A stretch of DNA of 64,000 nt. Origin: Kibdelosporangium persicum. Its GTDB lineage: Bacteria > Actinomycetota > Actinomycetes > Mycobacteriales > Pseudonocardiaceae. Shown here one piece after another: positions 45,164-64,000 of this stretch (its first letter is position 1; every line of letters begins with the position of its first letter). Under the pieces are notes generated by a model. The model searched no databases. It was not told where the DNA came from and saw only the letters and a program-made list of their open reading frames with translations. The position numbers were made by a program, and so were the translations under genes. The DNA is taken from contig NZ_JAAATY010000045.1 of the NCBI RefSeq assembly GCF_013280595.1, positions 1-64,000 on the forward strand, given 5' to 3'.

Positions 45164-45336
45164 GTGCCCGAACAGAACCATCCTCCGGACCTACGCCGCA
45201 ACCTCGGAGCCAAGCTCCGCCGAATGCGAAAACAAGCCCATCTAACCCTAGAACTCGCGGCACCGAAGCTCGACACAACCCGAAGCGCACTCCACCGCGT
45301 AGAAACCGGCCAGACCAAGGCGAATGTCCACCTAGT
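45164..45336 (+). pseudogene. XRE-family gene truncated by IS481
   Basis: GTG 45164 opens an HTH_XRE domain (LRRNLGAKLRRMRKQAHLTL, LAAPKLDTTRSALHRVETGQ, TKANVHLV) that runs into the left end of the IS at 45337 and then reads a few IS-encoded codons to a stop. The downstream half is not found on the other side of the IS, so DNA between was probably lost. Confidence 0.8.
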
Positions 45337-46468
45337 TGTTGCGGGTCATGAGGTTGTTGACGCCGGATAGGGCCTGAGGATGGGGACGGGTCTTTCAGCG
45401 GCAGGATGAGAAGTACCACCAACTCGTCCGTTGAGCAGAAAGACCCGTCCGTGCTCCACCGTAACGCCCCGCTGTCTGTTGAAGGCCGCCGCCGTCTGGT
45501 CGAGCGCTGCCAGACCCGTCCGATCGCGCATGTCGCCGCGGAAATGGGGATTTCCCGGCAATGCGCCTCAACGTGGGTCAACCGCTACCGCCAGTTCGGC
45601 GAGGCTGGTTTGCTGGACCGGCCCAGCGTCCCGCACCACCAGCCCACGGCCACCCCGGCCGAGGTGGTAGCCCGCATCGAACAGCTCCGCAGGCACCACA
45701 AGCACTCAGCCCGCCGGATCGCCCTGGAACTAGCAGGCGAGGGCATCACCATCTCGGTGCGCACCGTCAGCCGGCACTTGGCCCATCTCGGCCTCAACCG
45801 CCGGAAGTTTCTCGACCCGAGCGGTGAGACCAACCGGGCACCCCGCAAGATCCACGCCCGCTGGCCCGGCCACATGATCCACCTCGACGTGAAGAAAGTC
45901 GGGCGGATTCCTGACGGTGGTGGCTGGCGGGCCCACGGCCGCGGCAGCGAGCAGGCGCGGCGGTCCAGGCGGGCCACCGGCCGGCGAAACCCTGGCGGCC
46001 GGCGGGTGTCTTACACCTACCTGCACTCCGCGGTCGACGGGTTCTCTCGGCTGGCCTACACCGAGGCCTTACCGGACGAGAAGGCCCGCACCGCGATCGC
46101 GTTCCTCTCCCGGGCCCGGGCGTTCTTCGCCGCCCACGGCATCACCCGCATCCATCGCATCGTCACCGACAACGGCTCCTGCTACAAAGCCAGCAACTTC
46201 GCCACCGCCCTACACGCACTCGGGACACGCCACCAGCGCATCACGCCCTACACACCCCGCCACAACGGCAAAGTCGAACGCTACAACCGGATCCTGGCCG
46301 AAGAATTCCTCTACGCCCGCACCTGGACCAGCGAACAACAACGATCAGAGGCTCTTCCGGTGTGGAATATCCACTACAACTACCATCGACCCCACACTGC
46401 CGCCGGAAACCAGCCACCAGCCACCCGGCTGCGCGCCGGCGTCACCAACGTCATGGCCTCATACAACA
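45337..46468 (+). mobile_element. IS481-family insertion sequence
   Basis: The ends TGTTGCGGGTCATGAGG (45337) and the reverse complement of the right end (TGTTGTATGAGGCCATGACG, from 46468) form imperfect inverted repeats sharing TGTTG and GTTG.TGACGCC. It encodes one DDE transposase. The flanks, ...CCACCTAGT and GCGCAGCTGG..., show no target duplication. Together with two truncated, unrelated genes on either side this suggests an adjacent deletion or recombination between two copies. Confidence 0.85.
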
Positions 46469-46659
46469 GCGCAGCTGGTGGACGCCGGCGAACCGTTCGT
46501 GTACCGGCCAGGCGCCGGGTGCGCCGACTGTCCGTTCGCTGCAGTATGTCCCGCGCTGCACCGAACTCCGGGACTGCTGGGTGTCCAAAACCGACGGCGC
46601 CCCCGGCGAAGCTGGTCCGCTACGTCGGCGCGCAACCACGCTATCTGCCCGGCCCGTGA
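45451..46659 (+). CDS. IS481-family transposase, reading past the IS end
   Basis: GTG 45451 (VLHRNAPLSVEGRRRLVERC) is chosen by family likeness. An N-terminal HTH (AAEMGISRQCASTWVNRYRQ) is followed by the DDE core: HLDVKKVG, VTDNGSCYKA and HNGKVERYNRILAEEF. The normal end is at VTNVMASYN, where the IS ends. With no stop inside the IS, translation continues about 63 residues into flanking DNA. Confidence 0.9.
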   Translation: MLHRNAPLSVEGRRRLVERCQTRPIAHVAAEMGISRQCASTWVNRYRQFGEAGLLDRPSVPHHQPTATPAEVVARIEQLRRHHKHSARRIALELAGEGITISVRTVSRHLAHLGLNRRKFLDPSGETNRAPRKIHARWPGHMIHLDVKKVGRIPDGGGWRAHGRGSEQARRSRRATGRRNPGGRRVSYTYLHSAVDGFSRLAYTEALPDEKARTAIAFLSRARAFFAAHGITRIHRIVTDNGSCYKASNFATALHALGTRHQRITPYTPRHNGKVERYNRILAEEFLYARTWTSEQQRSEALPVWNIHYNYHRPHTAAGNQPPATRLRAGVTNVMASYNSAAGGRRRTVRVPARRRVRRLSVRCSMSRAAPNSGTAGCPKPTAPPAKLVRYVGAQPRYLPGP

Positions 46660-47353
46660 CTATGGGCGTCGCCAGCGCCTGCCCGTCGACCAGGGCGTCG
46701 AGCGTAGGTTAGCGGCCGAACGCGGGCGGGCGGTGCACCGGTACCTCGAAGACCGCCACCACGCAGCCACCTGTCCCTGCGACGCCCGGATATCAGTAGA
46801 CTGGGTGCCGCTGGGCTTCAGCCTCACTGAGGAAGACCGCGCACTCGGCACCACGCTCCTGCGTCACCATGCCGTGGTGTGCCCGGTTCGCCACACGCGC
46901 AGCTCCGCTGACCTCCGGGTAGAACCCAACCTGGTCTTCGATGACACCGACGCCGACACGGTCGTCATAGCCAAGCCTGATCTCCTGTACCACGACGGCA
47001 CCACGTGGGTCTGGCGAGAGGTTAAGACATCGGCTTCAGCTCGCCGTGGGACGCGTCCTTGGCTCGAGCAATACCCACAGCTCGCTCTGGCCACCATTCT
47101 CGCTGCACGTGACGACTTCGGGCTGGGATTCGGCCGGGTCGAGCTGGAGGTCCTCCGTCCCGGCGGTGCCGACCTCTACACGCTCGACCCACGGACACCA
47201 GAGGTCCGTCAGCACGCTGAGACGGTCGTCCGCGATTCATTCGGCCAGTGGCATGACGACGACCGGTTTCTCCCCACGCCAGGCCTGCATTGCGCCGACT
47301 GCGAAATGTCCCAGTGGTGTTCCGCTCGGGCAACACCCGGAAAAGAGACATGA
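46469..47353 (+). pseudogene. PD-(D/E)XK nuclease-like protein, N-terminally truncated by IS481
   Basis: From the IS edge an open frame reads AGCADCPFAAVCP, then RRSWSATSARNHAICPARDY, a RecB/Cas4-type start. The catalytic core follows, with KPDLLYHDGTTWVWREVKTS (the D...ExK of PD-(D/E)XK nucleases). It ends with a CADCEMSQWC cluster that could ligate iron-sulphur with the upstream cysteines. It lacks its own start codon. Its TGA overlaps the next ATG as ATGA, so it was the first or an early gene of the pPIWI_RE operon. Confidence 0.8.
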
Positions 47354-48366
47354 TGGACGCGACGACCTTGCTCAACCACCTTGCCCGTGGCATGCACGCT
47401 CTGTCCGACCACGACAGTGCTGGCCCGTCGGTTCCTCCGTACCCAGACGACACCCAATACGCCCTGGATCTGGTAGTCCGTGAGTGCCTCGACCACGAGC
47501 GAACGCCGCCGACAGGAGTGCCTGAGCTGGTTCGGTGGTGCACGGACCTCGCATCAGAGCATTGGCCGTACCAGCCCGGCCAGAGCGGGACAGCCCTCGT
47601 CGACCCGGTGCACCACACTCGGACCCGAGCGTGCGCCGAGCTGGCAGGAGTGGCAGCCACCGCCGACGCGCTCATGGTCGAGGCTTTGTCCGACCTTCCT
47701 GAAGCCGAAGCAGCCGAGCGATTTCAATTTCTCCGGTCACATGTTCTGGTCGGACCTGACACACAGCGCGAACTCCTGATGAAGAACCCGAAGGCCGCGT
47801 CGGTCTTCAAGTTCATCAAGGCTTTGTACCTCCCAGTTCCGGCCGCCTGGGTCGTCCGGGGACGGGTGGCCCTGTGCGAGTGTGGCCTGCCTGCGCAGTC
47901 GGATCGCCTCGCGGGCGAACTGATCACCTGGTGCGAACGTGAAACCTGTCCGCCAGGGACCCGGGTCGCGCAACGGCTGCCGACCGGCCGGGCGTTCCTG
48001 CTTCATTCCGCGCTCCGGCTCTTCATGCACCTGCCGTCCTCATTAGAGGATCGCGTTCGGAACAGTCTCATGGCCACAGGCCTTCCGGTCCGCACACTGG
48101 ATCTCGCCACGCGGCGCCACGAAGTCGAATTTCCTGGCAGAGCACCAGTTTCCTTTCGATGCTACGACCGGATGGTCGGCTCAGTCCTCGCCATCGACGC
48201 TACAGCTGACCGAGTGGACATCGCGGTAATCCCGGACAGCTGTGCGTTGGCCACGCCTGTCGCCCGCCAGATTTTCGCCGCCGCACTTCCGCCCGGATCA
48301 CATGTCACCCTCGCGACCGAAAGCGAACTACGCGCCAGCACGATCAATGACCGAAAGGACACCTGA
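47350..48366 (+). CDS. pPIWI_RE-associated REase-like protein
   Basis: ATG 47350 follows GGAAAAGAG and overlaps the nuclease stop. The 338-residue protein matches, by remembered pattern, the restriction-endonuclease-related partner of pPIWI_RE systems: VPELVRWCTDLASEHWPY, LVDPVHHTRTRACAELAG, LYLPVPAAWVVRGRVALCEC and a Cys-rich insert (CECGLP...CERETC). The place where a D...xVKD catalytic core would be expected reads PVSFRCYDRMVGSVLAIDAT, so it may be catalytically inactive. It directly precedes the helicase. Confidence 0.7.
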   Translation: MMDATTLLNHLARGMHALSDHDSAGPSVPPYPDDTQYALDLVVRECLDHERTPPTGVPELVRWCTDLASEHWPYQPGQSGTALVDPVHHTRTRACAELAGVAATADALMVEALSDLPEAEAAERFQFLRSHVLVGPDTQRELLMKNPKAASVFKFIKALYLPVPAAWVVRGRVALCECGLPAQSDRLAGELITWCERETCPPGTRVAQRLPTGRAFLLHSALRLFMHLPSSLEDRVRNSLMATGLPVRTLDLATRRHEVEFPGRAPVSFRCYDRMVGSVLAIDATADRVDIAVIPDSCALATPVARQIFAAALPPGSHVTLATESELRASTINDRKDT

Positions 48367-48383
48367 TCCGCGACCCCGAACCT

Positions 48384-51300
48384 GTGCTGGCACCGGTACT
48401 GGACGCCCTCAACGAAGCTGGCCTCCGATCGGATCAGGCAGCTTTGCTGTGTGACGTCGAACTGGGGCTCCGGTTGCACGAACGACTAAACCCCGCCGAA
48501 GCGGTAGGCGCGGCTTGGGTTCTGTTCTGCGGAATTCCCTACGCCCGCGGACGCGGACTTGTGACGAGGGACGAAGCGGCTATCGTTCTCCATTCGGCGC
48601 GCTTCTCGTTGTGGACCTTGCGTCGACGAACAACATGGCACGACGCCCTGGCCACTTACCAGGCCCTGGACAAAAGGGTCAGGGCCTTCGACGTACTGAG
48701 CCCGGATACCCGGATCGTCCGGTTGCCGACCGAGGGCATCGCCGATGACCGATTTACCCAGTACGACCAGCTACTGGCCGCGGCCCCTCCCTTCAAAGGC
48801 AGCCCAGCCACCTTCGCTCGGCAAGGATGGCACCAGTTCCAAGCTGGCCGCGCGACCATCCGCGTCGATCTGCCCGATACCGCGCATCTCGCTCGGCCTG
48901 CCGGACACGACATCCATTTGCTTCCGCCCGGAAATGGCGATCCGATACCGGTGAACTGGGACGAGCTGATCGACACAGCTAAGGACATGGACGCCATCGA
49001 ACCCCACGATTGGGCGCGCCGTATGCGTTCAGTCCGGCTCCGGACGCGAGGAAAATCGACGTTTCGCGAGAAGCGCGAGTTCACCGTCGCGGGAATCCAG
49101 CACCTCCTCGGCATCGTCGGAGCGGGGAAAAGCACCTTACGTGACGTGCTGACCGTGCACCTTGCCCGACAGGGCGGTCGGATCACAGTCGTGGTTGGCG
49201 ACGTCGCCGAAACCCTTGAGCTGGTCAGGCTTTACAACCTATACACCGGAGGCAAGGCGGCTCCGATCCTGGGTGCGTCGGGCAAGGAACGGCATGCACA
49301 GCGGATGCACCGCAGACTCGCCGGGCGCGGCGAGGCGAACGTCCTTGCCCACAAGGATCCCGGGTTCAGCTACCTCGGCACATCATGCGTGCTGAACACG
49401 CTCCTCAGCGACCAGGACGATGTCCTCGCGTTCAACCAGGCTCCGTGCACGCGGCTCCACCGCCGCACCGTGCGGCCCGACGCCAGAAGAAAGTGGTCGA
49501 CGGTGCCGGTGACCTGCCCCTACTGGGTTGGGTGCCCGCGGTACCGCGGAGCGCACGAATTGGTGCAGGCCACCATCTGGGTTTCGACGCCAGCCGGTCT
49601 GGTGGATGCCGCGATACCACACCCACAAAACGCCGAGAAGATTCGTTACCTCGAGGCCGCCTGTAGACGCAGCGACCTCGTCATCATCGACGAAGCCGAC
49701 CGGGTACAGATGCAGCTTGACCGGATGTTCGCTCCCGCAGTCACGTTGGTTGGCGGCTCGGATAGCAGGTCGCTGCTGGATGACCTGGTAGGTCACAAGA
49801 CCCGGGAGCTGTTCGAAGGTGCCCGGACGCAGCTGTCCGACCACGATGTCGAGGTCTGGACGGCCGCAGTCAACACAATTACCACGACCACCGATCGACT
49901 GTACGCAATGCTGGTCGCCGACCGTGACCTTCGGGAATGGGTACGGACCGGCTACTTCAGCGCCTGGACCCTACAGCTCCGGCTGATCGAAGAACGCTAC
50001 CCCGACGACGCGACCGACGTGGAAGAGCCTCGCCGAGATCTAACTGACCTGCTCGACGAGTTCCGGGACAACCCTTTCGGCGATCGCGCCGGCAAAGTCA
50101 CGCCGGAGCTGACGGCGCTTGTGAACGAGGTGCTCACCACCGGACGCCAACCGGCAACCAGGCGAAAGCTGACCGATTTCCTGGTGGAGTTGTTCGACCT
50201 GTCCCGATTCTGACGAAGCTGGAGCTGGCGTACAAAGAGCAACAAGAACAGCCCAGGCCGGCCAAGCGCCGGCACAAGCCAGCGCCGGATCCGGCGGACT
50301 GGCTGGACAAGAAGCGCCGCCAGTTCGAGTTCACCCTACTGCTGTCGGCGCTGGAACCGAAACTGGCCCTGATGAACGCAATGTGGCCTCGCGTCGAATC
50401 GGTCCTGAAGCTGGGTTTCAACGACATGTACCAGCGACCGCCTGACTACGGCCCGATCGTCCCGGAAGCACCGAGGGGAAACGTACTGGGCTTCCAGTTC
50501 ATCGTCGACGGGCCGCCACGGCACGGCGTACAGAGCGGTGAGCTGCGGTACTTTCGGTGCAGTGGCATCGGGCGGGAACTGCTCCGCGCCATGCCCGACC
50601 TTCCCAGAGTCGACGGCCGCCCGGGCACCAACGTGCTCCTGATGTCGGGTAGCAGCTGGGCAGGCAGTTCCAGCCGCTACCACGTGTCGGTCCCGGTCGG
50701 CGTCATCCTGCTTCCGGCCGAAGATCACCTCAAAGCCGTGGTCGGCGGAACCGAAATGCGGTTCGAGTTCCTGCAGAGCGGAGCCGGGACCGAGACACTG
50801 AAACTTTCCGGCGCTGATCTCGACGAACGACCGGAGATCATCCGCCGCATGGTGACCCGCCTGGGCGAGCCCGACCACGACGGCAGCATCCTGGAGCGCG
50901 AGCTGCGAGAATGGCCTGATGCCCGGCGGCGGATCCTCCTCCTGGTTGGCAGCTATGACGAAGCGGAGCTGGCGGCCGACACCCTGCACACCCTGAGCTC
51001 GAGGTGGAAGGGCAGGGTGGTGCGGCTCGTGTCCGACGACGCCGAGGTCGTCGTCGGAAATGACGACGAACGACACGCACCGGTCTTGCGCCGCGGCGAC
51101 GTAGACACCCTTCGCCACACCGATGCGGAGATCCTCGTGGCACCACTGCTCGCCGTAGAGCGCGGGCACAACATCCTCAACGACGACAAGGTCGCTGCCA
51201 TTGGCAGTGTGTTCTTCCTGGCTCGACCCAACCCCCGGCCCGACGACCTGGGGCTCGCGGTCCATACCGTGAACGACTGGCTGGTCCGGTTCACCGATAG

Positions 51301-51745
51301 CACCGACTTCGCCGAGCATCTGCGCGAAGCGACCGATGTGGACGAAGGCGCCTCAGCGATCCGCAAGGAAGCGCGGACCCGCTGGTACCGAGCCCTCGCC
51401 AGGTCTCTCGGCTGGAGCTCGCTCGGCGTCGACCGTGACACGGTGACCTGGGATTTGCTGGTGCTCATCTGGCAGGTGATCGGCCGTCTGGTGCGCGGCG
51501 GGGTGCCTGCACGCGTCGTGTTCGTTGACTCTGCGTTCGCACCGGAAACGGCCGCAGGCAAACCAGCCGACGAAACGTTCGCGACCAGTCTGCTGCACAA
51601 CATCCATGCTGTGCTCACGCCGTACCTGACCGCGGACTCGACCGAATCGGCTCACGATCGCTACATCGTCGACGCGCTCTACCGGCCGCTCTGGGCAGCG
51701 CTGGACCGCCTTCTCAACGACAGGACCTCGGAATGCACTCTCTGA
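48384..51745 (+). pseudogene. DinG-like helicase of the pPIWI_RE system, frameshifted
   Basis: GTG 48384 is the first standard start, but a CTG at 48363 overlaps the upstream TGA (CTGA) with AAAGGA before it. The first part has Walker A GIVGAGKST (about 245), a Cys-containing insert (CPYWVGCPRYR) and Walker B LVIIDEADRVQ. It stops at TGA 50211-50213; one base restored there continues as TKLELAYKEQQEQ into the C-terminal half (RILLLVGSYDEAELAADTLH, VAPLLAVERGHNILND). Total length is one base short of open. It would unwind duplexes for the PIWI nuclease. Confidence 0.8.
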
Positions 51746-54371
51746 TCACTCCCTGCGCGTACGAACCCGACCCCGACGCCGGCCCGTGGGTCGAAGACCT
51801 TCACGTGACGACGTTCGCCGAGCAGTGGCGCACCGAACTGACCGATCTGTTCGCGCTGGGCTGGCGCAGCCGGGAACCATTCGCCGGGCTGCCGGTCCGG
51901 AAGCTCGACAGCCTCCTCCGCGCGGTGGCACCGGGGATACTCGCGACCGGCCGCGGTGCCGCCGCCGACAGTTCGGTGCCGTGGCTCTATGCGCGGGAGC
52001 CGCTTCCCCACGACATCGTCCTACCCGCGTTCATGAGCTGGGTCGCTGCTCTCCGGCCAGAATCCGAGCACCAGGCCGCCACCCGTCGCGTGCTCGACGC
52101 GGTCCGCCGGACGGAACCGGAATGGTCGACCTGCGCGGTCGAGCTATCCGGTGCCGACGTGTCCCCAGGCGGGACCGCTTCACCACACCGACGGCTCTAT
52201 GCGCTCCTGCCCGAGCTGCTGGCTCTTCGCCTGGCCGAGCGCCCCTTCCGCGCCGAGGGGACGCACACGGACATGTGGTTCCGCGCGGTCCGGCTCGAAC
52301 ACGGGGCGGAACTGGTTTCGTGGCCACCGCAGAGGTTTCGGAAGAACGGGGTGGATCACCGGTACTCGGCCCGGTTGGGGATCACTCTGCACACCGTGCC
52401 GTTTTGCCCGTCGTTCCGCGTCCACGTGTCGTCGGGAATTCGCCGATGGGTGACCCGTTCTCCCATCTGGGTTCCAGCCGGCCGCGGCGCCACCGTGCTG
52501 TTCGACCTTCCGTTGCCCTGGCAGGAAGAGACCGAGTCGCGCCGCCTCCGTCTGGTCGGAAACGCGATGAAGTTCTCCGTCTCCGACGGGCGGTACTCGT
52601 GGCGGGGGCACAGCCCGGTGGAGATCATCGACGACCTCGACATCGTGCGGCGTTACCCGAAACTCGAAGACCTCATCGCCGACCCGCGCGCGTGGCTGGC
52701 CGGCTAAGGCGGCGTCATGGCGGCGGTAGTGCACAGCACCGCGATGGGCCCACACAAGATCGCCAGCGGCCTGATGCCCGGGGAACGGGCTGACCTCGAC
52801 AACTGGGTGGAAGCCGGGCTCCGTCCTTGGCTACGCCGAGTTTCTTCGCTGAAGCGGGCGTTCCGCGTCACCAAGCCGGTTCTGCTTCCGAAGGTGCCAA
52901 AGACCGACCCGGTGCGTCGGGCTGCGGTGGAATTGCGGGCTGTGTCGGCCAGGAGAGCCTCGCTGCGTGCCGTCTTGGCAGGGGAACCGCTGCACGTCGA
53001 CATCGTCACTGTCTATCCGGAGACACGGGAGCACCTGCTGCGGCAGCTTGCCCTGCTGCTCGGGGCTGCCGATCCCGGCGAAGGCGACCACCGCCGATGG
53101 TCCGTGGACGGCCTCGAAGTTGAGCTCGTTCTGTCTGACGCAAGCTCTCTCACCAAGGCCCTGAAAACCCTGCCGGACGCGCGGCTTCACGCCGCTGAGG
53201 CACTGCGCGCGCGGCGAGCCGCGGTGGCAGCGCGGTACTCACCTCGCATCGGTCGGCCAGGATTGGCTCTAATCGAGATTCCCGGCGCCGACCGGTTCAC
53301 GGTCCCCGGCACGGATCCGAAGCCCGCCTTGCGGCTTGGGTTTGCGACACCAGGCGGCTCTCTCAGTTCATCCAGATCGCTGACGACCACACCGCGGATC
53401 CGGCGACCCGCGCCGAAGCCGCGTGCAGGGACGGCCTTCGTCAGCTCGGCGCCTTCTCTACACCAGTACACCGGGCAGGCACCGGCGTCCCGGCTGACCT
53501 CCAGTACGTGGCCCTGTGGGTGGTGCGCAAGCAGGCCACGACTACGACCAAGCGAGCGAGCCGGCATCTCGTCGCCGTGCGAGTACAGCCCGCCGATCCT
53601 GAGCACCCGGTCCAGGGCTGGGACGACCGCGTCCAGGACTGGGTTCCGTACGCGGACCTCCTTGTTTCTCTCGCGGCGGGCGGAAACTCCGCCGACGACG
53701 TCCCAGCGAGTGGCCTTCGTCCGCTTCTTACGGTCGAGGACGAACGAGCCGACATCGAACGACGCGTGCGCGCAATCCTCTTCCAGGTCCGGAACCAGCC
53801 GACACTGCTGCTTGCGAACGCAGGTAACCTGCGAGACTCATGGCGGTGGCTGGGTAATGAGACCCTGGTGCGGGACAAGCTCGGCTTTGCCGGCGAACCG
53901 GACCAACGCCTGGGTGCCTTCGGCGAGCACCTGCGGGTTGTTCTGCTCCGCGACCGCAACAGCCGGGACGAGGTCCCGCAGTGGTACGCACCTGGCAAGG
54001 ACAACGACACGCCCGGCTTCGGTGTCGGCCTGTGGGTGTCGCAGGACGGGGCGCCGGACAACCTGGTCTTCGCCAGCACAGCAGACGTGCCCAAGAACTT
54101 CCCCAAGGTCCCCCGCGGACTCCGCAAGCTCTCGGGGAGGGAGGGCGCCGGCCCTGCGCCCACGGTGGCTGCGTGGAATCCGCAGTACCTGGAACTGACG
54201 GTGCTGGGCTGCCCTGAACAGGACGAGGCGGCGACGTGGGCGGCGATCGCCCACCAGCTCAGGTTCCACGACGACTACGTTCCCCTCGCCCGGCCTCTAC
54301 CGATGCACCTGGCCAAGCTCGCTGAGGAGTACCTGAGCCCACAGCCCACGGACGGCGGTTCGCTGGGGTAG
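51733..54371 (+). pseudogene. pPIWI_RE protein A, split by a stop and a frameshift
   Basis: ATG 51733 overlaps the helicase end. The first 324 codons (to TAA 52705-52707) form the N-terminal region (VPWLYAREPLPHDIVLPAFM, PLPWQEETESRRLRLVGNAM). The same frame resumes immediately (AAVVHSTAMGPHKIASGLMP), so the TAA is a nonsense change or a gene split. At 53344-53346 one base is missing; the new frame carries the RNase H/PIWI domain: PTLLLANAGNLRDSWRW, LRVVLLRDRNSRDEVPQWYA, TVLGC and ARPLPMHLAKLAEEYL, including the R and E that name the family. These proteins are predicted nucleic-acid-guided nucleases. Confidence 0.85.
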
Positions 54372-54465
54372 TACCACCTCGGGCTGCCGCTGGTGGACAA
54401 CCCAGCGGCACCCCCACACCAGCACATCACAGGGCGCTGACAACGGCCTCCCATAGGCTGTAGAA

Positions 54466-55479
54466 ATGGCATTTGGCGACTCGCGCGAACCGGCAGGCAA
54501 GGGACCACGGTCCGTCCCCAAGCCGAAACGGCTTGCACACCTCCGCGTCGACAATCGCGGCTACCCGATCATCGCAGCAATCGGCCAGGCGCCCGGAGAC
54601 ATCGACTTCGGCGCGCTGTCGGAGCCGCGAAAGCTCGCATTGGCCACCTTCGACCTCTGCGCAGTGTGCGCGCTTCCACTTGGCCAGGAGCTGCGGTGGC
54701 AGGTTTCCTTCGACGAAGCAGCGGCGACGGCGAAAACGTTCATCTCGAGTGAGGCACCGGTCCACGAGATCTGCGCTCTGTACGCAGCCCAGGTCTGCCC
54801 GCTCGTTTCGTCTCCGTACGCCCGACACGGCGACGAAATCCGTAAAGGCATGAAGCGTCCCAAGGTCACCTTCCTGACCGGGTTCCGCCGGACAGCACGG
54901 GTCTTCGGCCAACGCTCAGGGCTTCAAACTTCCGAGTGTGTCCTGCATTTCGAGACCACCGGCGTCGAGCAGCGGCTGAAGCTGTCGACCTCAGCCGAAG
55001 CGATCGAGGCCTACCAGCGAGCGCTCGAGGCCGAGGTGGAGGTCACGATCGACGACACTGAGCGAGAGATTGCCACACGCCTCACCGAGCTGACGATCCA
55101 GGAGGGTGAAGATTCCGGCAGTGTGATGGCAGGAGCCGCGTGGTTCGCGGGCGGCGCGTTCTGTCCTAAAGTCGGCAACGTGCAGGGCATGCGGCGCTTC
55201 ACCGAAGACCCGATCTACACGGCTCTCGCACGACGGGTGCTACTGGAACCTGGATTCGCGAAAAAGTTCGAGGAGACGGACGACCTCTACACCCGCGCTG
55301 CAATCAAGTGGCTCAACAGCCGTGACCACCTGCCGGAAATTCTGGCAAGCTGGCGCAAAACCGCGTTGAATCGAGCGCTGAGCGGTCGGTCGGCACCTGA
55401 CAAGAGCAGCGGCGGAGTTAATCTTAAGAAATCCAAGCGCAAGCTTCAAGGCGCCGCTCGGCGCAAGAACCGCCGATGA
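54466..55479 (+). CDS. Cys-rich hypothetical protein downstream of pPIWI_RE
   Basis: ATG 54466 is placed by content; no strong ribosome site is seen. The 337-residue protein has a possible zinc site (CAVCALPLG near 66-74, then VHEICALYAAQVCP), a central helical region with many Glu/Thr, and a very basic end (KKSKRKLQGAARRKNRR). It lies 94 bases past the PIWI gene on the same strand. It may be an accessory component; no family is named. Confidence 0.65.
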   Translation: MAFGDSREPAGKGPRSVPKPKRLAHLRVDNRGYPIIAAIGQAPGDIDFGALSEPRKLALATFDLCAVCALPLGQELRWQVSFDEAAATAKTFISSEAPVHEICALYAAQVCPLVSSPYARHGDEIRKGMKRPKVTFLTGFRRTARVFGQRSGLQTSECVLHFETTGVEQRLKLSTSAEAIEAYQRALEAEVEVTIDDTEREIATRLTELTIQEGEDSGSVMAGAAWFAGGAFCPKVGNVQGMRRFTEDPIYTALARRVLLEPGFAKKFEETDDLYTRAAIKWLNSRDHLPEILASWRKTALNRALSGRSAPDKSSGGVNLKKSKRKLQGAARRKNRR

Positions 55480-55817
55480 CCCCGACACGGGAGCTGGGTG
55501 GCGTTGCCACCGGACCCTCTGGCCTGGTAGCGGCGCGCGGGCGGGGTGGCGTACTCAACGCGTGGGGTGCTGGAGCAGCGGAATCTGCGACTGTCGGCGT
55601 GAAACGACGTGACAGCGAGAGTGCGGCGCGAATTCAACCGTCGGCAGGTTTGGTCGCGTAGAGGGCTTCGGGGTGCAGCGAACCTGCCGGTCGCCGTCCG
55701 ACCTGGGCTAGCTGCTGTCGTGGCCATGCATCGCGGGCGAATGACCTGGCGAACCTATTCGTGAATCCGGATGGGCCGACGTATGGCTGCGGGGTTGATG
55801 TTCAACATGGACACTTG
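55480..55817. other. Flank of IS3 without a confident gene
   Basis: Frames here on either strand are short and Arg/Gly-rich. The right part runs into the IS3 left end at 55818. The N-terminus of the CHAT gene beyond the IS is not recognisable in this stretch. Confidence 0.4.
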
Positions 55818-55882: not shown

Positions 55883-56193
55883 GTGGCAGCACCGAAGAAG
55901 TACCCCGACGAGCTGAGGGCTCGTGCAGTCCGGCTGTATCGAGAGTCTGATCCCAAGCCGGTGATCCGCCGGCTGGCCGAGCAGCTCGGGGTGCATCACG
56001 AAGCACTGCGTAACTGGATCCGGCAGGACGAGGCCGACCGCGGCGAGCGCGACGATCGGCCCACAACCAGCGAGTCGGAGGAACTGCGCCGACTGCGGCG
56101 GGAGAACGGGAACTCAAGCGTGCCAACGAGATCCTCAAGGCCGCGAGTGCTTTTTTCGCCTCGGAACTCGACCCGACCCGGCGACGGTCGTGA
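55883..56193 (+). pseudogene. IS3 orfA (HTH), one-base frameshift
   Basis: GTG 55883 opens the usual orfA HTH (YPDELRARAVRLYRE, RRLAEQLGVHHEALRNWIR). At about 56113 GAGAAC-GGGAAC lacks one C; adding it restores RENRELKRANEILKAASAFF and a stop at TGA 56191-56193 that overlaps the orfB GTG as GTGA. The lesion matches the one-base losses elsewhere in the window. Confidence 0.85.
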
Positions 56194-57095
56194 AGCTCGT
56201 GCAGCAGCTTCGCGGCCGCTTCGGGGTCGAGCCCATCCTCCGGGTCCTCGGTATCGCCTCCTCCACCTACTACGGCTGGGTCCGGCGCCAGACAGACCCG
56301 TCACCGCGGCAGCGTCAGGATGAGGAGCTGGTGGCCGAGATCGTGGAAATCCACACCACCTACGGCAGCCCGCGGGTGCACGCGACGCTGCGCCGCCGCG
56401 GGATCCGGGTGTCGCGCAAGCGGGTCGAGCGGCTGATGCGCGGCCACGAGCTGCAGGGCGCGTTCCTGCGCAGAAGGTGGCGAACACCCTCGACCCGCCG
56501 CGATCCACGAGCGACGCCGGCGCCGGACCTGGTCAACCGGGACTTCACCGCCCCGGCCCCGGACCGGCTGTGGGTTGCCGACGCCACCCGTATCCCCACC
56601 GGCGAGGGCGTGTTCTGGCTGGCAGCTGTCCGTGATGCCTTCTCCAACCGGATCGTGGGCTGGAAGACCAGCGACCGCTGCGACACCAGCCTCGTGCTCG
56701 GCGCGCTGGAGTACGCGATCTGGTCCCGCGAGGTCCGTGACGGGCAGCTGATCCACCACAGCGACCGAGGCTCGACCTACACCTCGATCCGCTTCGCGCA
56801 ACGCTTGGCGGACAACGGAATCCTGCCGTCGATGGGCTCCGTCGGCGACTCCTACGACAACGCGCTGATGGAGAACTTCTTCTCCACGCTGAAGATCGAG
56901 CTCGTGTACCGGAACTCGTGGCATACCCGCGACGAGGCCGAGAACGCGATCTTCAGCTACATCGACGCCTGGTACAACACCCAGCGCATCCAGAAAGAGC
57001 TCGGCTGGCTCAGCCCCGACGAGTACGAGGCTACCTGGCACGCCGATCAACTCGAGCCATCTATCATCCCTGCGTCCCCAACCGGAGCCAGGTAA
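56190..57095 (+). CDS. IS3 orfB transposase
   Basis: This 301-residue DDE transposase starts at GTG 56190. It shows the HTH_21 region (SPRQRQDEELVAEIVEIHTT YGSPRV) and the catalytic residues in VADATRIPTGEG (D), HHSDRGSTYTS (D) and NALMENFFSTLKIE (E), then YNTQRIQKELGWLSPDEYEA. In IS3 elements a functional transposase is normally made by frameshifting from orfA. Confidence 0.93.
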   Translation: MKLVQQLRGRFGVEPILRVLGIASSTYYGWVRRQTDPSPRQRQDEELVAEIVEIHTTYGSPRVHATLRRRGIRVSRKRVERLMRGHELQGAFLRRRWRTPSTRRDPRATPAPDLVNRDFTAPAPDRLWVADATRIPTGEGVFWLAAVRDAFSNRIVGWKTSDRCDTSLVLGALEYAIWSREVRDGQLIHHSDRGSTYTSIRFAQRLADNGILPSMGSVGDSYDNALMENFFSTLKIELVYRNSWHTRDEAENAIFSYIDAWYNTQRIQKELGWLSPDEYEATWHADQLEPSIIPASPTGAR

Positions 57096-57171: not shown

Positions 57172-58158
57172 GTGCACCTTGGACGCAGGCACGTAAAACC
57201 ACAACACGAGCCGCTGTGGCCAGCGAACCCTCTGCCATCGCCAGGTACCACATGGACTCTGGAAACTGGCTGGAAAACACAGGTCGAGATCGCACCTCCG
57301 GCTGTCGGGACGCTGTTGGACACGCTGTCGCGAGGAGACGAACTGCCCCAGCGAGGCATCACCCGGGCGAAGTGGGACAGCCTTGGCGCATTCCTGTTCC
57401 CGCACGAGGAGATCTGGTCTGGCACCAACGAAAGCCCCCGCTCAGTCCTCGTGTGCCCGGACCCGAGGCTGTGGCAATTGCCGCTCGGCGCGCTCACCCG
57501 GGACGGTGTGCACCTCGCCGGCGTTGCCGAACTGGTCCTCACCCCGAGTCTGCGCACGGCGGCGCTAGTAGCCAGCAGGAGTCGTACCCGGCAGAGCCGG
57601 CCACTAGGCCCAACAGTCAGCATTCTTGATCCGCGACTGCCTGGGCACGACGTCGAACGCCAGACGCTGGACATGTGGGCGGCCGACCATGTCGAGGACT
57701 CTGGCCTCGACATGGTCAGCCAGGCCTGCATGCTGTACATCAGCGGACGCGGCGACGCCGCCGGCGAGTCGGCCACCCTCGGACACACGGCGATCACCCT
57801 GGAACGTCTCGCCAACCTGCCGCTGCCCCCGCTGGTCGTGCTCAACGGCTGCTGGAGCGGCACAGCGGTGAGCCGGTACGGCACGGACCCGTTGAGCCTG
57901 GCGGTCGGTGCCATGCTGGGCGACGCGGACTCGGTGATCGCCGGTACCGGGGCCATCGGTGGAATCGGTTCCGCACTGGTCGCGCAGCACCTGTTCCCGT
58001 TGCTGAGGTCGGGTATCCCGGTGCGCTCCGCGCTACGCTTGGCGCAGTTGCGCGTACGGGACGAGCATCCCGAGCTCGGACCGTTCGAATGGGCGGGACT
58101 CTGCATGGTGGGCATCGACGCACGGTGGAACGGCCGGGCCTTCACCAGCGGAACATGA
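57172..58158 (+). CDS. CHAT-domain (caspase-like) protein, possibly N-truncated
   Basis: The frame opens at about 57172 (TTG) with no good ribosome site; IS3 sits 46 bases upstream and may have removed the N-terminus. The product of up to 328 residues has the CHAT order: VLVCPDPRLWQLPLGALTRD, LTPSLRTAALVA, MLYISGRGDAAGES, VVLNGCWSGTAVSRYG, SALRLAQLRVRDEH. The nucleophile Cys (LNGCWSG) is present, but where a His of the GHG type is expected it reads SGRG, so protease activity is doubtful. It is convergent with the NB-ARC gene 20 bases away. Confidence 0.8.
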   Translation: MHLGRRHVKPQHEPLWPANPLPSPGTTWTLETGWKTQVEIAPPAVGTLLDTLSRGDELPQRGITRAKWDSLGAFLFPHEEIWSGTNESPRSVLVCPDPRLWQLPLGALTRDGVHLAGVAELVLTPSLRTAALVASRSRTRQSRPLGPTVSILDPRLPGHDVERQTLDMWAADHVEDSGLDMVSQACMLYISGRGDAAGESATLGHTAITLERLANLPLPPLVVLNGCWSGTAVSRYGTDPLSLAVGAMLGDADSVIAGTGAIGGIGSALVAQHLFPLLRSGIPVRSALRLAQLRVRDEHPELGPFEWAGLCMVGIDARWNGRAFTSGT

Positions 58159-58178: not shown

Positions 58179-60674
58179 CTACCCATCATCACCCTCACGG
58201 AACACGGCGTGGTCCGCCCGCAGTTCGTTAGCCAGCGGCGAGCCGATCTCTTCCAACAGGTCCACTGCATCCTGGAAGAACGCAGCCGAGGCCGCGTGAT
58301 CGCCGGTGGCGCGGGCGACCCTACCCAGGCCGTCCAAGGCCAACGCCTCCTCGAACCTGCTACCGCAGTTCTTGCCCGCCTCGATGGCCGCCAGGTGAGA
58401 CCGCTCGGCTTCGTCGTACCGGCCAAGGCGTAACAGCACCCAGCCAAGGGCGTTGTGAGCGCGGGCGATGTCCATCGTCATGCCTTGCCCCGACTGCCGG
58501 CAGAGCGCGAGCGACTCCGTCAGGTGCTGTTCCGCCTCGGCGAGGCGCCCGGTGTCCAGCTCGATCCACCCGATCGTGCGAATCGTGATGGCGGCGTTGC
58601 GAATCAATCCCACCCTGAGGTAGAAGTCGAGCGCTTCACTGGCGAGCCGGAGCGCCTTATCGAACTCACGCCGGTTGCGGTGGACCACCGCTTGCTGGAC
58701 AAGTGTGTTGGTGGCTCCGTGTTCGTCGCCGATCTCATGGAACAGTCGGTTGGCGATCTCGTACTGGACCAAGGCGGCATCGTCGTCACCGCGTTCGTGT
58801 AGCGCGACACCCAGGTAGCTCCGCGTGACAGCCTCGGCACCACGATCAGCCAGTCGGATCGCTCCCGGCAGCGCGAGTTCGTGGCTCTCGATCCACTCGT
58901 GGATCCGCTTGGTGAGAAAAAAGAATCCACGGAAGAAGCACGCCAGCCGCCATCTCGCTGTGTCGAAACTCGGATCGTCCAGCCTGCACAACGCGACGGC
59001 ATTGGCAGTCTCGGTGTAGAACCACGCCAAGGCACCGTTGTAGTCGTTGAACGGCGCCGGTACCAACGGCGTTTCCGGCAACGGAATCCGGTACCGCTGC
59101 GGCTCCAGGAATTCGTCCGCACGCCTGGCGGTGTGCACGAAGTAGTCGAACGCCCGCTGACGCGCGTTGCGCGTGTTCTGGTCGCCGCGCGCCAACTCCT
59201 CCGCGTACAGCCGGATGAGATCGTGCATCTCAAAGCGTCCGGCGACCTCGCGGGCGAGGTGTAGGCGAACAAGGGTTCTCAGGTGTCTGACCGCGGCACG
59301 TGGCGACAGGCCGCCGAGCGCAGCGATGACGTTGGCGTCGAACGTCCGACCCGGAAACAGGCCGACCGCTCGGAAAACTGCTGCGACATCGGCGGAAAGC
59401 TGACGATACGACCACGAGAACGCGCCACGCGGAGTCGAACGCGGATCAGGTCCGTCAAGTTCCTCCAGGCGGTCGTGTTCGTCCACCAGCTCCCCCACGA
59501 GTGCCGCGAGGGACGCCTCCGCACGTGTTCGCGCGTTCGCCGCCACCACCCGCAGCGCGAGCGGGAGCCGTCCGCACAGGTCCACGAGTCGCTCAGCGGC
59601 CGCAGTTTCCTGCTCGACGCGCGGGCCGACCAGCGCGCGTAGCAGACACACGGACTCCTCGTCAGAAAGCAAGTCCAGTCCGATAACCGTCGCATCGTGG
59701 TGGATCACCAGTCCGGGCAGTGTGTTCCTGCTGGTGATCAGCACCGGGCACAACGGCGTTCCGGGCAGCAAAGGCCTTACCTGCTCCTCGTCCCTGGCGT
59801 TGTCCAGAACGATCAACACCCGCCTGCGGGCCAGCGCGGACCGCAGCGCTGCCGAGCGGCTGACAACATCGTCCGGCATCGTCGACGTATCCAGCCCCAG
59901 CTGGTCAAGCCAGTTGGTGAGCACCTCTTCAGGCAGCGCCGGTTCGTCAGGCCCCCAACCGCGCAAATCCCGGTACAGAACACCGTCCGCAAACCCGTCG
60001 ACATGGCGCCAGGACCAGGTGACCGCGAGGGTTGTCTTACCGATTCCAGGCTCCCCGGTCACGACAGCCATCGGCACGAAGTTGCCCTTGCGCAGCAACA
60101 ACTCGTCCAGAAGGACGAGTTCGGCGCGCCGGGCAGTGAACTCGCTGACGCCGGGTGGAAGTAGTTGCGGCACAGCAACGCTGCGTTTGGGCGGAAGACC
60201 GGACAGCGCTGTTGGTCTGGCCCGGCGGGTCCGGACACCGGCTTCACCGCACGCTGCCTCGTAGAGCTGGTCCCAGTCGCGGACTCCGGTGGCCGCAGGC
60301 GAGATCTTCATCAACAGCAGGCGCATGACCGGCCACGTTGTCGTCATGTTCGGGAGAACCCGGCCCTTCTGCGCGTCGTCCCATGTCGACTTCCCGATGC
60401 CGCTGGCCGCCTCGGCAGCACGAACTCCGCCAAGCACGCCCACTGCCCTGGCCAACCCATCGCGCAGACGCAACTGGTTCGGCCCAGGCGATCTCGGCAC
60501 GCGGTCCGCCTCCCTTGTCCTCGGGCGCAGTACTGCGAGCGTAAGTCGCATGCCACGGCTGGCCGCAACAGCCGACGCAGGCAAAGTCGGTCTGTCACCC
60601 AGGTGGCGTAGCGGTTCCACCCCCGGAGTGCTCAGTAGTGCCTTGGGCGCGACCATGGCTGGCGTGTCCGACAT
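58179..60674 (-). CDS. NB-ARC/TPR STAND NTPase (AfsR-like without SARP domain)
   Basis: ATG 60674 follows GGAGG; a later ATG near 60551 is possible. The 831-residue protein has a short N-terminal helical unit (about 70-130), then an NB-ARC domain with Walker A TGEPGIGKTTLAVTW (about 210), VLIVLDNARDEEQV, VLITSRNTLPG and CGRLPLALRVV. A winged-helix-like part (GRFEMHDLIRLYAEE) and C-terminal TPRs (SYLGVALHERGDDDAALVQY, AHNALGWVLLRLGRYDEAE) follow. STAND proteins oligomerise on ligand binding. Its pairing with a CHAT protein fits a sensor-effector defence or signalling unit. Confidence 0.85.
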   Translation of the reverse strand: MSDTPAMVAPKALLSTPGVEPLRHLGDRPTLPASAVAASRGMRLTLAVLRPRTREADRVPRSPGPNQLRLRDGLARAVGVLGGVRAAEAASGIGKSTWDDAQKGRVLPNMTTTWPVMRLLLMKISPAATGVRDWDQLYEAACGEAGVRTRRARPTALSGLPPKRSVAVPQLLPPGVSEFTARRAELVLLDELLLRKGNFVPMAVVTGEPGIGKTTLAVTWSWRHVDGFADGVLYRDLRGWGPDEPALPEEVLTNWLDQLGLDTSTMPDDVVSRSAALRSALARRRVLIVLDNARDEEQVRPLLPGTPLCPVLITSRNTLPGLVIHHDATVIGLDLLSDEESVCLLRALVGPRVEQETAAAERLVDLCGRLPLALRVVAANARTRAEASLAALVGELVDEHDRLEELDGPDPRSTPRGAFSWSYRQLSADVAAVFRAVGLFPGRTFDANVIAALGGLSPRAAVRHLRTLVRLHLAREVAGRFEMHDLIRLYAEELARGDQNTRNARQRAFDYFVHTARRADEFLEPQRYRIPLPETPLVPAPFNDYNGALAWFYTETANAVALCRLDDPSFDTARWRLACFFRGFFFLTKRIHEWIESHELALPGAIRLADRGAEAVTRSYLGVALHERGDDDAALVQYEIANRLFHEIGDEHGATNTLVQQAVVHRNRREFDKALRLASEALDFYLRVGLIRNAAITIRTIGWIELDTGRLAEAEQHLTESLALCRQSGQGMTMDIARAHNALGWVLLRLGRYDEAERSHLAAIEAGKNCGSRFEEALALDGLGRVARATGDHAASAAFFQDAVDLLEEIGSPLANELRADHAVFREGDDG

Positions 60675-61236: not shown

Positions 61237-63796
61237 TCACTGGCTCGGCTCCTCGTCGTCCGCGTCGACTGTCCGCCGGTACTCAGGATGGTTGCGGTCC
61301 ATCAACCTCGCCAAGTGCACCGGCACGGGATAGCTGGTCCGCCCGTCCCACGACACGGAGTGATCGCACAGCCTCGCCGCAGCGACGGCGTACCGCACCG
61401 GATCGGAGTCCACACCCACCACGACGATCTCGGTCGCAGTGTGCGCGTACCACGTATTCCTGCCCAACTCGGCACTTGCGGACCAGCGCCCCACATCACG
61501 GCCGACACGGCGAGGCGGCGGGCCACCGGCGAACTGGCGCGGAACGTTGGACAGGATCCAGGTGCTCGCCGAGCCGTTCAGTGCGTACAGGGACTCGGTG
61601 GTCTTGACTATGTACAGGCCATTCTCGGCCTTGGGGTCGGAGACACGCACCTCGACCGGACGCGGTAGATCGCGGCTCCCGGACGTGACGCGCACGACGG
61701 CCCGAGGACGATGGCCGGTGGCCGGGTCCCATCCCGGCAGGGCGAGGCGGCCGTTCACCAGACAGGAGGCGTCCGGTTCGAGGTCGAGATTCTTGTTCGC
61801 CAGCAACGGGTACAACGATCGTGCGCTGTCGCCGGACACCATCAGCACATAGCCGGCTCCCGTGGCGATGTGCGGCTGCAGCAGCCTGAGCGCGGTGTCA
61901 ATCGCCGCAACCAGAACATCGTCCTGCCGTTTCCCTCCGGGCAGCGGGCTCGCCCGAAACGCCGCGTTCGCAGTGAAATAGTCGTGCCATCCGGCCTCGG
62001 TGTCGGTCTTCCGCTCCCGTACCGCCTGATATGCGAGAACCCGCCAGTGCTCGCCATCAGGAATCGTGGCGACCAGCGACCAGCTCAACTTCGGCCGACC
62101 GTTGGTCCACGCGTTTCCACGCTGCTCCCGCACGTGCAGACCGACGTACGTGACCGGTTCCTTCGTCCCCAACGATCCGTATGACAACGCCTTCGTCATT
62201 CGCGGGTGGACCAGACCCGCAACCCGCATCAGGTCCGCCAACGCGCCGTGGCCGCGGTAGTCGTCCGCAGGCTCGTGCACTGGTTTGGTCTCCGGTGCGG
62301 TCGCGAGAAACTGCGCCAGCACACCGCGCTCCGCGAGCAAGCTGTTGACCAAAGGTTTCGCGTCCTCGTCCGGCGTCTTGCCGTCGTACTCCGTCTCACA
62401 GAGCGCCAGCACTCCCGTTCCCGCCGGCCCCGTGAGGTGCGGCACACGGTTCAGTGCATCGATCCTCTGGCGCTGCCTGCCATGGACGAGGAGCTCCTTC
62501 GCGTGGTGGAAGACGATCTCCACCCCGGCGCCGACGTCGATCAGCTCGTCGTGCGGGAGGTCCTCACCCAGCGAGGCCTGTTCGAAGTGCTATCCGAGCA
62601 AACGCAGCACGCGAGTCCGGGTACGTGGCTCGTAGTAGAGGACGAGAAGGCGCAGTCGCTCGCAGCCGGCGGCCTTGATGATGGTCAACAGGGAATTCTC
62701 GTCGAGAAGCTGAGCGTCCCGGCCCTTTTTCGGGATGCGCCTGGCCTGCTGGGAGAACCTGTGCCCTTTCACCTCACTGGCGGTGAGGTTCGGGACCTCC
62801 AGCACGTCGGCGGCATGGCGACTCAGCTCCCGCACGGTGTACATGCCCACACCGCGGCCGACCGGCCACCGCACGGACTTCGCCACGAGCGGGCGCAATC
62901 GCCCTGGTTCGCCCGTGCGGCCGAGGTCATCTGGCGCGAGAAGGCATTCGCCGTCGAGTCGCCGCGACACCGACACCGCGATCATGCTCGTCCGCTCGAT
63001 CGAGGTCTTGCCTGCCCGCTGTTCCATCGCAAGGCACAGCTACGGGGAGTTTGAGCGCCTCGGGGTCAGCCATCGGTACGGGTGCCGTAGAGCCCACGGC
63101 TTAACCGCGCCACAGAGGGATCGAGTACCAGCACGGGTGTACGCAGGTTCGGCATCGTCTGCATCGACAACCGAACGCGCAGAGCGGCGTACTGGAGCTC
63201 TCCGTTCTTCTTCCAGGCATCCGACCACAGCGCTTTCGGGTCCCACACCAGGAGGTTGCCGTCGGTGTCGGTTCGCAGCACCACCTCCCCGCCGTCGACC
63301 TGCCACGACGTCGCCTCTAGCCTGCGAGCGGCCTCCCACGTCGCGGCGTCGTAGACCCAGTTCGGTGCGTCCGGCTGGTTGCCGAACCGGTGCACGTGGC
63401 CCGCGAGTGAGACCTCCTCGACGGTGCTACCCGCCACCAGCTCCGCCAGCTCACTGGAGTAATTGAAGGTGATCTTGTCATCCGGTACACCGAGCACGGC
63501 CTGTTCCCACAGCACCACGGCATCGCGCACGTCGCGCACGTCGAGCGGCCTGCTGGCGATCAACTGCTGCGGCGCGTGCTTCTTGCTGGCGGGAAAGAGA
63601 TTCACGAAGGCGCCGCTGTAAGCACGCAGGCCGGTGGCCAGTCCCGTGTACGGAAGGTTGGCGTTGGCGTGCGCATGATTCCGCAGCCGCTCCCACGCGT
63701 CCGCCACCTCCTCCGGGAAGCGGTGGATGTAGGCCGTGCCGTGCAGCTGCTCGGTCAGCGGGTAGGCCAGTAGAGCAAGTTCCTGTCGGTCGTCAC
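61237..63796 (-). pseudogene. pPIWI_RE protein B, broken by frameshifts and an in-frame stop
   Basis: GTG 63796 overlaps the upstream TGA (GTGA); after five codons one C seems missing, then the frame reads LALLAYPLTEQLHGTAYIHR. Three further shifts lie between about 63020 and 63080, joining WLTPR and KTSIERTSMIAVSV segments. A TAG at 62590-62592 sits within otherwise continuous frame (RVLRLLG, then HFEQASLGEDLPHDEL). The C-terminal RNase H/PIWI domain is intact: SWSLVATIPDGEHWRVLAYQ, RAVVRVTSG, AHTATEIVVVGVD and YPVPVHLARLMDRNHPEY. It is a different subfamily member from protein A. Confidence 0.85.
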
Positions 63797-64000
63797 GAAG
63801 CCTCCTTGCCGTCGATACCCGCGAAGACCAACCAGGACTCCAGCGTTGAGCCGTAGATGCGCCGCAGCGCGCGCTGTTCAGCAAGGCTGAGATTGTCGTA
63901 GTAGTAGCGGAGCAAGCGCCGCAGATCCGTGCCGAGCTTCTCGTCGTGGAACGCGTCGTCCACGAGGTAGAGCTCGACCGGGGTGCCACCGCGCCGTGCC
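63793..64000 (-). CDS. C-terminal end of the gene upstream of pPIWI_RE B (partial)
   Basis: From the right edge the minus strand reads GTPVELYLVDDAFHDEKLGT, DLRRLLRYYYDNLSLAEQRA and LESWLVFAGIDGKEAS, ending in TGA 63793-63795 overlapping the PIWI start. It is probably the C-terminus of the helicase partner of this second system, by position and charge pattern. The rest lies outside the window. Confidence 0.55.
   Translation of the reverse strand, partial: ARRGGTPVELYLVDDAFHDEKLGTDLRRLLRYYYDNLSLAEQRALRRIYGSTLESWLVFAGIDGKEAS

What the first reader, a model, noticed from the sequence alone, without database searches (positions are those of the whole stretch)
46469..54371. Four-component pPIWI_RE operon with an extra Cas4/RecB-like nuclease
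The order is PD-(D/E)XK nuclease with Cys clusters, REase-like protein, DinG-like helicase, PIWI protein, then a Cys-rich protein. The known pPIWI_RE core, predicted as an RNA/DNA-guided conflict system, is PIWI, helicase and REase. Here the REase-like protein seems to lack its catalytic lysine motif, while a separate Cas4-like nuclease sits coupled in front by ATGA overlap. The catalytic role may have moved to the new gene. The couplings and motifs are seen; the division of labour is inferred.
Basis: partly seen in the sequence, partly recalled or inferred. Interest (0 to 1): 0.85.

Follow-up and report, generated by a model that had tools for sequence, protein, structure and literature searches.

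The report
Broken PIWI defence operon, extra nuclease
The region is a recently broken copy of a known bacterial PIWI-type defence operon, but its intact relatives show a pattern worth testing: where an extra Cas4-like nuclease sits in the operon, the original nuclease has repeatedly lost its active site, as if the cutting job had been handed over.

Summary
Window 46469-55490 is 88% identical to an intact operon of Amycolatopsis taiwanensis. The first gene has lost its 5' half beside an IS481-like element, the helicase has a frameshift, and the PIWI gene has a stop codon and a frameshift. All four core proteins match PADLOC-DB models (PprPDDEXK, PprRE, PprDinG, PprPIWI), so the four-gene layout is catalogued.

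Of 136 loci with the extra nuclease and a scored RE protein, 73 have lost the RE active site; of 42 loci without it, none has (a 43rd is dead but cut off by its contig end). The extra nuclease keeps its D-E-K site in 135 of 136. The PIWI first catalytic Asp is absent in 136 of 136 deduplicated loci. RE changed state at least three times on the tree, inside extra-nuclease lineages. Three events are weak statistics: chance about 0.19 by branch length.

Likely reading: PIWI binds, DinG unwinds, RE persists as scaffold, and a tandem Cas4-like protein cuts.

The parts
45332..46465 (+). IS481-like element (transposase ORF from 45406); CTAG at its left end, but the CTAG that follows 4 of 4 other right ends in the genome is missing here, which suggests an adjacent deletion
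46469..47353 (+). 3' fragment of the tandem Cas4-like nuclease gene (NUC, PADLOC PprPDDEXK): end of the degenerate domain 1 plus domain 2 (PD..EVK, Q, Cys cluster)
47350..48366 (+). RE protein (Y helical domain, zinc ribbon, REase-like end); ORF open, ATGA overlap with NUC; the five site positions read E-A-R-R-Y where live relatives read E-D-D-D-K
48366..51745 (+). DinG-family helicase (domain Z plus helicase), broken by a one-base frameshift near 50203; the ATG with which three relatives start is not conserved (a GTG follows at 48384)
51733..54371 (+). pPIWI_RE protein (X, MID, RNase H domains), broken by a nonsense codon at 52705-52707 and a one-base frameshift near 53344; the first RNase H Asp position is Trp
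54466..55479 (+). 337-residue protein without family match, also present in the two closest relatives
55883..57095 (+). IS3-type transposase ORFs on the right flank (integrase core shown for 56190-57095)
61237..63998 (-). second, different pPIWI_RE locus (PIWI 76-82% identical to that of L104, a three-gene locus); PIWI broken by a frameshift near 63074, helicase running off the window

Best explanation
Seen in sequence: the window holds a decayed copy, probably acquired horizontally, of a four-gene PIWI-RE operon. In its lineage three of four predicted nuclease centres lack catalytic residues: the PIWI RNase H domain, the RE REase-like domain and the first Cas4-like domain of NUC. Only the second Cas4-like domain of NUC keeps its D-E-K site. 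Inferred: in the intact system the PIWI protein binds a guide and a target without cutting, DinG helicase unwinds the nucleic acid, RE holds the complex together, and NUC (a RecB/Cas4-type nuclease with cysteine clusters) degrades the exposed DNA. The presence of NUC made the RE active site dispensable, and it was lost at least three times.
For: Families. Intact relatives and lesions. RE site intact in 42 of 42 decidable NUC-lacking loci and lost in 73 of 136 NUC-bearing loci; after merging at 95% DinG identity, lost in 0 of 37 against 52 of 98 (L155 set aside). NUC domain 2 D-E-K-Q in 135 of 136; the exception, L168, looks disrupted. Domain 1 has Arg at the Asp position in 132 of 136 and Lys at the Lys position in none; eight cysteines in 134 of 136. 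PIWI strand-1 position is W, H, Y, S or C in 136 of 136 deduplicated loci, never D. Well-supported branches force at least three changes of RE state, inside NUC clades. NUC model pLDDT 91.5; Foldseek hits are AdnA, the Argonaute-associated Cas4 protein ACE1 and SSO0001. The dead REase-like domain is still constrained: w 0.21, 0.55, 0.31, 0.65 and 0.28 in five pairs of RE-dead relatives, 0.12 in one live pair. RE is present in 136 of 136 NUC-bearing loci of this set.
Against: Only three independent losses. If losses fell at random on the tree, all three would land in NUC lineages with probability about 0.19 (my arithmetic from branch lengths 34.9 and 26.1). The third loss (L114, L207) keeps the D/E-x-K half and is softer; without it there are two. 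63 of 136 NUC loci keep RE live. NUC presence itself changes only twice on the tree, and gain cannot be told from loss. Foldseek finds no significant PDB match for the RE model (best E 0.14), so 'dead REase fold' rests on homology to live family members. The w values of the dead domain are noisy and mostly higher than in the other genes. No activity, guide or phage data.
Confidence: 0.6

Rival explanations
1. NUC makes or trims guides or substrates (as Cas4 trims CRISPR prespacers, recalled) rather than acting as the effector; RE lost its site for unrelated reasons.
For: Cas4-like fold and four-Cys clusters; NUC occurs together with live RE in 63 of 136 loci, where RE could still be the effector.
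Against: In RE-dead lineages NUC is the only one of RE, PIWI and NUC with an intact catalytic site, so it would have to do both jobs. NUC relatives also occur on two plasmids beside a protein of about 265 residues and an ImmA/IrrE protein, with no PIWI gene annotated in the stretches shown.
Confidence: 0.25
2. The link between NUC and RE loss is a coincidence of a few old events on the tree.
For: Three RE changes and two NUC changes only; probability about 0.19 from branch lengths.
Against: No loss in 42 decidable NUC-lacking loci, whose 37 deduplicated members form four separate groups on the DinG tree. The RE site is also intact in two Nostoc plasmid operons outside the phylum, which have no NUC annotated.
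Confidence: 0.2
3. The window operon is functional: the interruptions are sequencing errors or programmed frameshifts.
For: Substitutions against L053 are still concentrated at third codon positions in every piece, so any decay is recent.
Against: The lesions are of different kinds: IS-linked truncation, nonsense substitution, two frameshifts and a changed start codon. The missing 5' half of NUC was not found elsewhere in the assembly. Two relatives have single ORFs. The second PIWI locus is frameshifted too, which could also be read as a sign of an error-prone assembly.
Confidence: 0.07

Closest known systems
pPIWI-RE three-gene system (Burroughs, Iyer, Aravind 2013, PMC3702460; abstract, section 7 and passages read)
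   Same: RE (Y, zinc ribbon, REase), DinG-type helicase with domain Z, and pPIWI-RE in that fixed order with overlapping or closely spaced genes; the paper says PIWI comes in active and inactive versions
   Different: An added first gene (NUC), and in the window clade an RE without active site; the passages read describe RE as always the first gene
PADLOC-DB Ppr models (PprPDDEXK, PprRE, PprDinG, PprPIWI)
   Same: All four window proteins match; PprPDDEXK hits the full-length relative in L053 at 2.1e-129
   Different: The models carry no description or mechanism in the tool output, so nothing about RE inactivation could be seen there
Argonaute-associated Cas4 family protein ACE1 (PDB 9iab, 9iac; titles seen)
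   Same: Cas4-family protein tied to an Argonaute; Foldseek E 1.3e-5 to the NUC model
   Different: Chains of 266-269 residues, about half of NUC; partner system and function are recalled, and no paper on it was listed
PIWI-RE of Pseudomonas stutzeri (PMC10991935; passages read)
   Same: PIWI-RE gene clustered with a DinG helicase and a restriction-type enzyme
   Different: Catalytically active PIWI-RE (D525, D610) with RNA-guided DNA cleavage; the PIWI proteins here lack the strand-1 Asp (mapped by pattern, not aligned to this protein)

Membership tests
pPIWI-RE system | pPIWI_RE_X, MID and RNaseH_pPIWI_RE domains in one protein | tested here: met
   (in three pieces in the window); single ORFs in L053 and L050
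pPIWI-RE system | RE - DinG (domain Z) - PIWI gene order, same strand, close spacing | tested here: met
pPIWI-RE system | The conserved Arg and Glu that name the family | not tested
   near-invariant R and E columns exist in A1 but were not matched to the published positions
pPIWI-RE system | Working gene set in the window | tested here: not met
   NUC, DinG and PIWI genes broken
Active PD-(D/E)XK REase (RE protein) | E...D...DxK site | tested here: not met
   E-A-R-R-Y in the window; 29 of 29 NUC-lacking family loci have the site (one with D for E)
RecB/Cas4-type PD-(D/E)XK nuclease (NUC) | PD, ExK and Q motifs with an N-terminal and three C-terminal cysteines | tested here: met
   (domain 2)
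CRISPR Cas4 | Adaptation context with Cas1/Cas2 | not tested
   no search for cas1 or cas2 was made; PADLOC Cas4 models reach 0.046 for the window ORF and 5.8e-5 for L053, far below PprPDDEXK
Catalytically active PIWI | First RNase H Asp in strand 1 | tested here: not met
   W in the window, D in 0 of 136 deduplicated loci; position mapped by strand pattern, not by a solved structure

The most novel reading that the evidence does not exclude
PIWI-RE systems have a replaceable cutting subunit. A tandem Cas4-like nuclease, recruited once or twice, took over DNA destruction and left the original restriction-type nuclease as a catalytically dead structural subunit in at least three lineages. This gives a guided system in which a dead PIWI directs a helicase and a Cas4-family nuclease.
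Probability: 0.45. Interest if true: 0.72.

Novelty: new variant of a known kind. Interest (0 to 1): 0.52.

Why it matters
I found one biochemical study of a PIWI-RE protein (PMC10991935, passages), and it concerns a catalytically active PIWI. In the 136 deduplicated actinobacterial loci examined here the PIWI lacks its first catalytic Asp, so RE or NUC would have to cut. The survey supplies natural operons with an intact site in RE alone, in NUC alone, or in both, so the question of who cuts can be answered by comparing three kinds of operon.

Tried and rejected
That call kept the best 80 of 332 relatives, ranked by likeness to a NUC-bearing helicase, so it leans towards NUC-bearing operons; the family, order/class and named samples are therefore given apart.

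Foldseek for the RE model gave nothing significant. An EVE/DCD paper (PMC7641849) listed for 'PIWI-RE' only spoke of 'Piwi-related' proteins in the passages seen. In one search I translated the first helicase piece in the wrong frame, so its 'DinGN' rows were not used; onward use ORFs.

Considered and rejected: that the 54466 gene is a fifth component (in 5 of 190 loci entries only). A programmed frameshift in the helicase was set aside because two relatives have one ORF.

Rows dropped: 11 of 190 loci had no scored RE gene. L155 (RE dead, no NUC seen) was set aside because its contig leaves 160 bases before RE. 13 loci without a long enough helicase, or without RE or PIWI, the window itself included, were left out of the tree, and 41 near-copies were merged. 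L042 was counted live although it lacks two of five positions; L114 and L207 were counted dead although they keep D/E-x-K. The IQ-TREE run used 51 of the 136 loci. Of the 91 family places listed, 82 lie in the 80 regions fetched; the 9 left out match 115 or fewer of 288 positions. From the places new regions were fetched; one weak match (G604) was not.
Full report
What is in the window. Pfam places the first in PDDEXK_1 (1.4e-16), the second in pPIWI_RE_Y, the third in pPIWI_RE_Z, and the PIWI pieces in pPIWI_RE_X, MID_pPIWI_RE and RNaseH_pPIWI_RE; the second helicase half has no Pfam hit. PADLOC-DB has a model for each: PprPDDEXK 1.7e-82, PprRE 4.4e-31, PprDinG 6.2e-119 and 1.1e-128 for its two halves, PprPIWI up to 3.4e-81. 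The four-gene set is therefore already catalogued.

The copy is broken. Window 46469-55490 aligns as one block to an operon of genome G178 at 88.2%; operons of G146 and G095 follow at about 82% and 75% over most of it. G178 is Amycolatopsis taiwanensis DSM 45107, by the contig of the same length (378820) with a 100% helicase match in the named collection. In G178 and G146 helicase and PIWI are single ORFs. The window has a one-base frameshift in the helicase near 50203 and one in PIWI near 53344, a nonsense codon at 52705-52707, and no ATG where three relatives start the helicase. The block begins at 46469, three bases past the end of an IS481-like element (45332-46465). Four of four other right ends of this element in the genome are followed by CTAG; the one here is not. 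The first half of the nuclease gene was not found elsewhere in the assembly. An element insertion followed by a deletion into the gene fits this; since several contigs end in this element, a wrong join in the assembly is not excluded. Substitutions against G178 are still mostly at third codon positions, so the damage is recent. The closest operons are in other genera while a same-genus operon (G218) is more distant, which suggests horizontal transfer (inference).

How common the extra gene is. In the host's family 77 of 390 genomes have a pPIWI_RE match. Of 81 loci entries examined there (80 fetched plus the window; the window's contig is present twice), 45 have NUC, RE, DinG and PIWI, 29 have RE, DinG and PIWI without NUC, and 7 are partial. 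Over the 190 entries of the whole survey, NUC lies upstream of RE in 136 of 136 loci that have both; in one of them (L168) it is 1.7 kb away. NUC is therefore a standing partner, as PADLOC's model implies.

NUC is a tandem. The model of the full protein has pLDDT 91.5, and I read the same order of helices and strands twice in it. Profile comparison of the two halves gives probability 84% and E 7.9e-6 over 86 columns at the end of each half, against 0.1-0.2% for three column-shuffled controls. Domain 2 has D-E-K-Q in 135 of 136; domain 1 has Arg at the Asp position in 132 of 136; eight cysteines are kept in 134 of 136. Foldseek finds AdnA, the Argonaute-associated Cas4 protein ACE1, SSO0001 and RecE.

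The RE test. In 29 of 29 NUC-lacking family loci the RE active site is complete (E or D, D, D, DxK); of 45 NUC-bearing loci it is lost in 27 (Fisher p 1.5e-8, inflated by relatedness). In the order and class samples outside the family, 25 of 29 loci could be scored: 13 of 13 NUC-lacking live; 3 dead and 9 live with NUC. In the named collection: 43 dead and 36 live with NUC, and one dead locus, L155, whose contig ends too near to decide. These samples overlap. Together: 73 of 136 dead with NUC, 0 of 42 without, L155 aside. After merging near-copies: 52 of 98 against 0 of 37, L155 aside. Two Nostoc plasmid operons with no NUC annotated keep the site. On the helicase tree RE state changes three times and NUC presence twice. 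The RE-dead groups are the window group (41 loci, L155 among them), a group of 10 with a different replacement pattern, and the pair L114/L207; live NUC-bearing groups lie between them. IQ-TREE on 51 loci needs three changes even if only starred branches count. With 57% of the branch length in NUC lineages, three losses all falling there has a probability of about 0.19. The pattern is consistent but not proven.

PIWI and RE as proteins. The strand-1 position that should hold the first catalytic Asp is W, H, Y, S or C in the 136 deduplicated loci; the mapping rests on the strand pattern, not on a structure. The window's RE is modelled at pLDDT 92.1, with a helical part, a ribbon-like strand region and a helix-strand-strand-strand-helix-strand end, but no significant PDB match. 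The live RE proteins L184, L059 and L106 match pPIWI_RE_REase (1.6e-20 or better), while dead L142 does not at 0.01. In five pairs of RE-dead relatives the dead domain has w between 0.21 and 0.65, in one live pair 0.12, so it is kept as a protein though perhaps less strictly. A role as scaffold is inferred.

Mechanism proposed. Dead PIWI binds a guide and target, DinG unwinds the hybrid or duplex (as proposed for the three-gene system, PMC3702460, passages), RE links the parts, and NUC degrades the DNA. Only sequence anatomy is shown.

What is known. PMC3702460 (abstract, section 7, passages) describes the three-gene system with RE always first. PMC10991935 (passages) shows RNA-guided DNA cleavage by a catalytically active PIWI-RE. 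Full-text searches for pPIWI-RE, PIWI-RE, the Ppr names, PIWI-RE with DinG or Argonaute, Argonaute with Cas4 family or ACE1, and PIWI-RE with nuclease terms listed no paper that names the extra nuclease or RE inactivation in title or abstract start. Only open-licence papers are held, some lists were capped (30 of 202, 25 of 163, 10 of 28), and three papers were opened.

Noticed in passing
window 61237-63998 (-), continuing past the window end: A second pPIWI_RE locus about 7 kb from the first, with a frameshift in its PIWI gene; a third, with an open PIWI frame, lies on contig C35 (L106). Two damaged PIWI-RE loci sit on one contig.
   Followed up: partly
L235 9091-12662 and L236 8791-12493 (plasmids of Rhodococcus antarcticus and Streptomyces albidoflavus): The tandem Cas4-like nuclease also occurs with no PIWI annotated nearby, followed by a protein of about 265 residues (PIN-like just under the cut-off in one of the two) and an ImmA/IrrE metallopeptidase: possibly a separate three-gene module; no literature search was made for it.
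   Followed up: partly
window 57172-58158 (+) and 58179-60674 (-): A CHAT-domain protein and an NB-ARC/TPR protein on the opposite strand lie between the two PIWI-RE loci.
   Followed up: no
window 45332-46465; contigs C1, C20, C22, C29, C32, C39, C59, C79: Parts of the IS481-like element match at several places, several of them at contig ends; 4 of 4 readable right ends and 4 of 4 readable left ends border on CTAG, unlike the window's right end.
   Followed up: partly
L114, L207: RE proteins with both Asp of D-x-x-D changed to Gly while the D/E-x-K half is kept: possible intermediates in the loss of the site.
   Followed up: no
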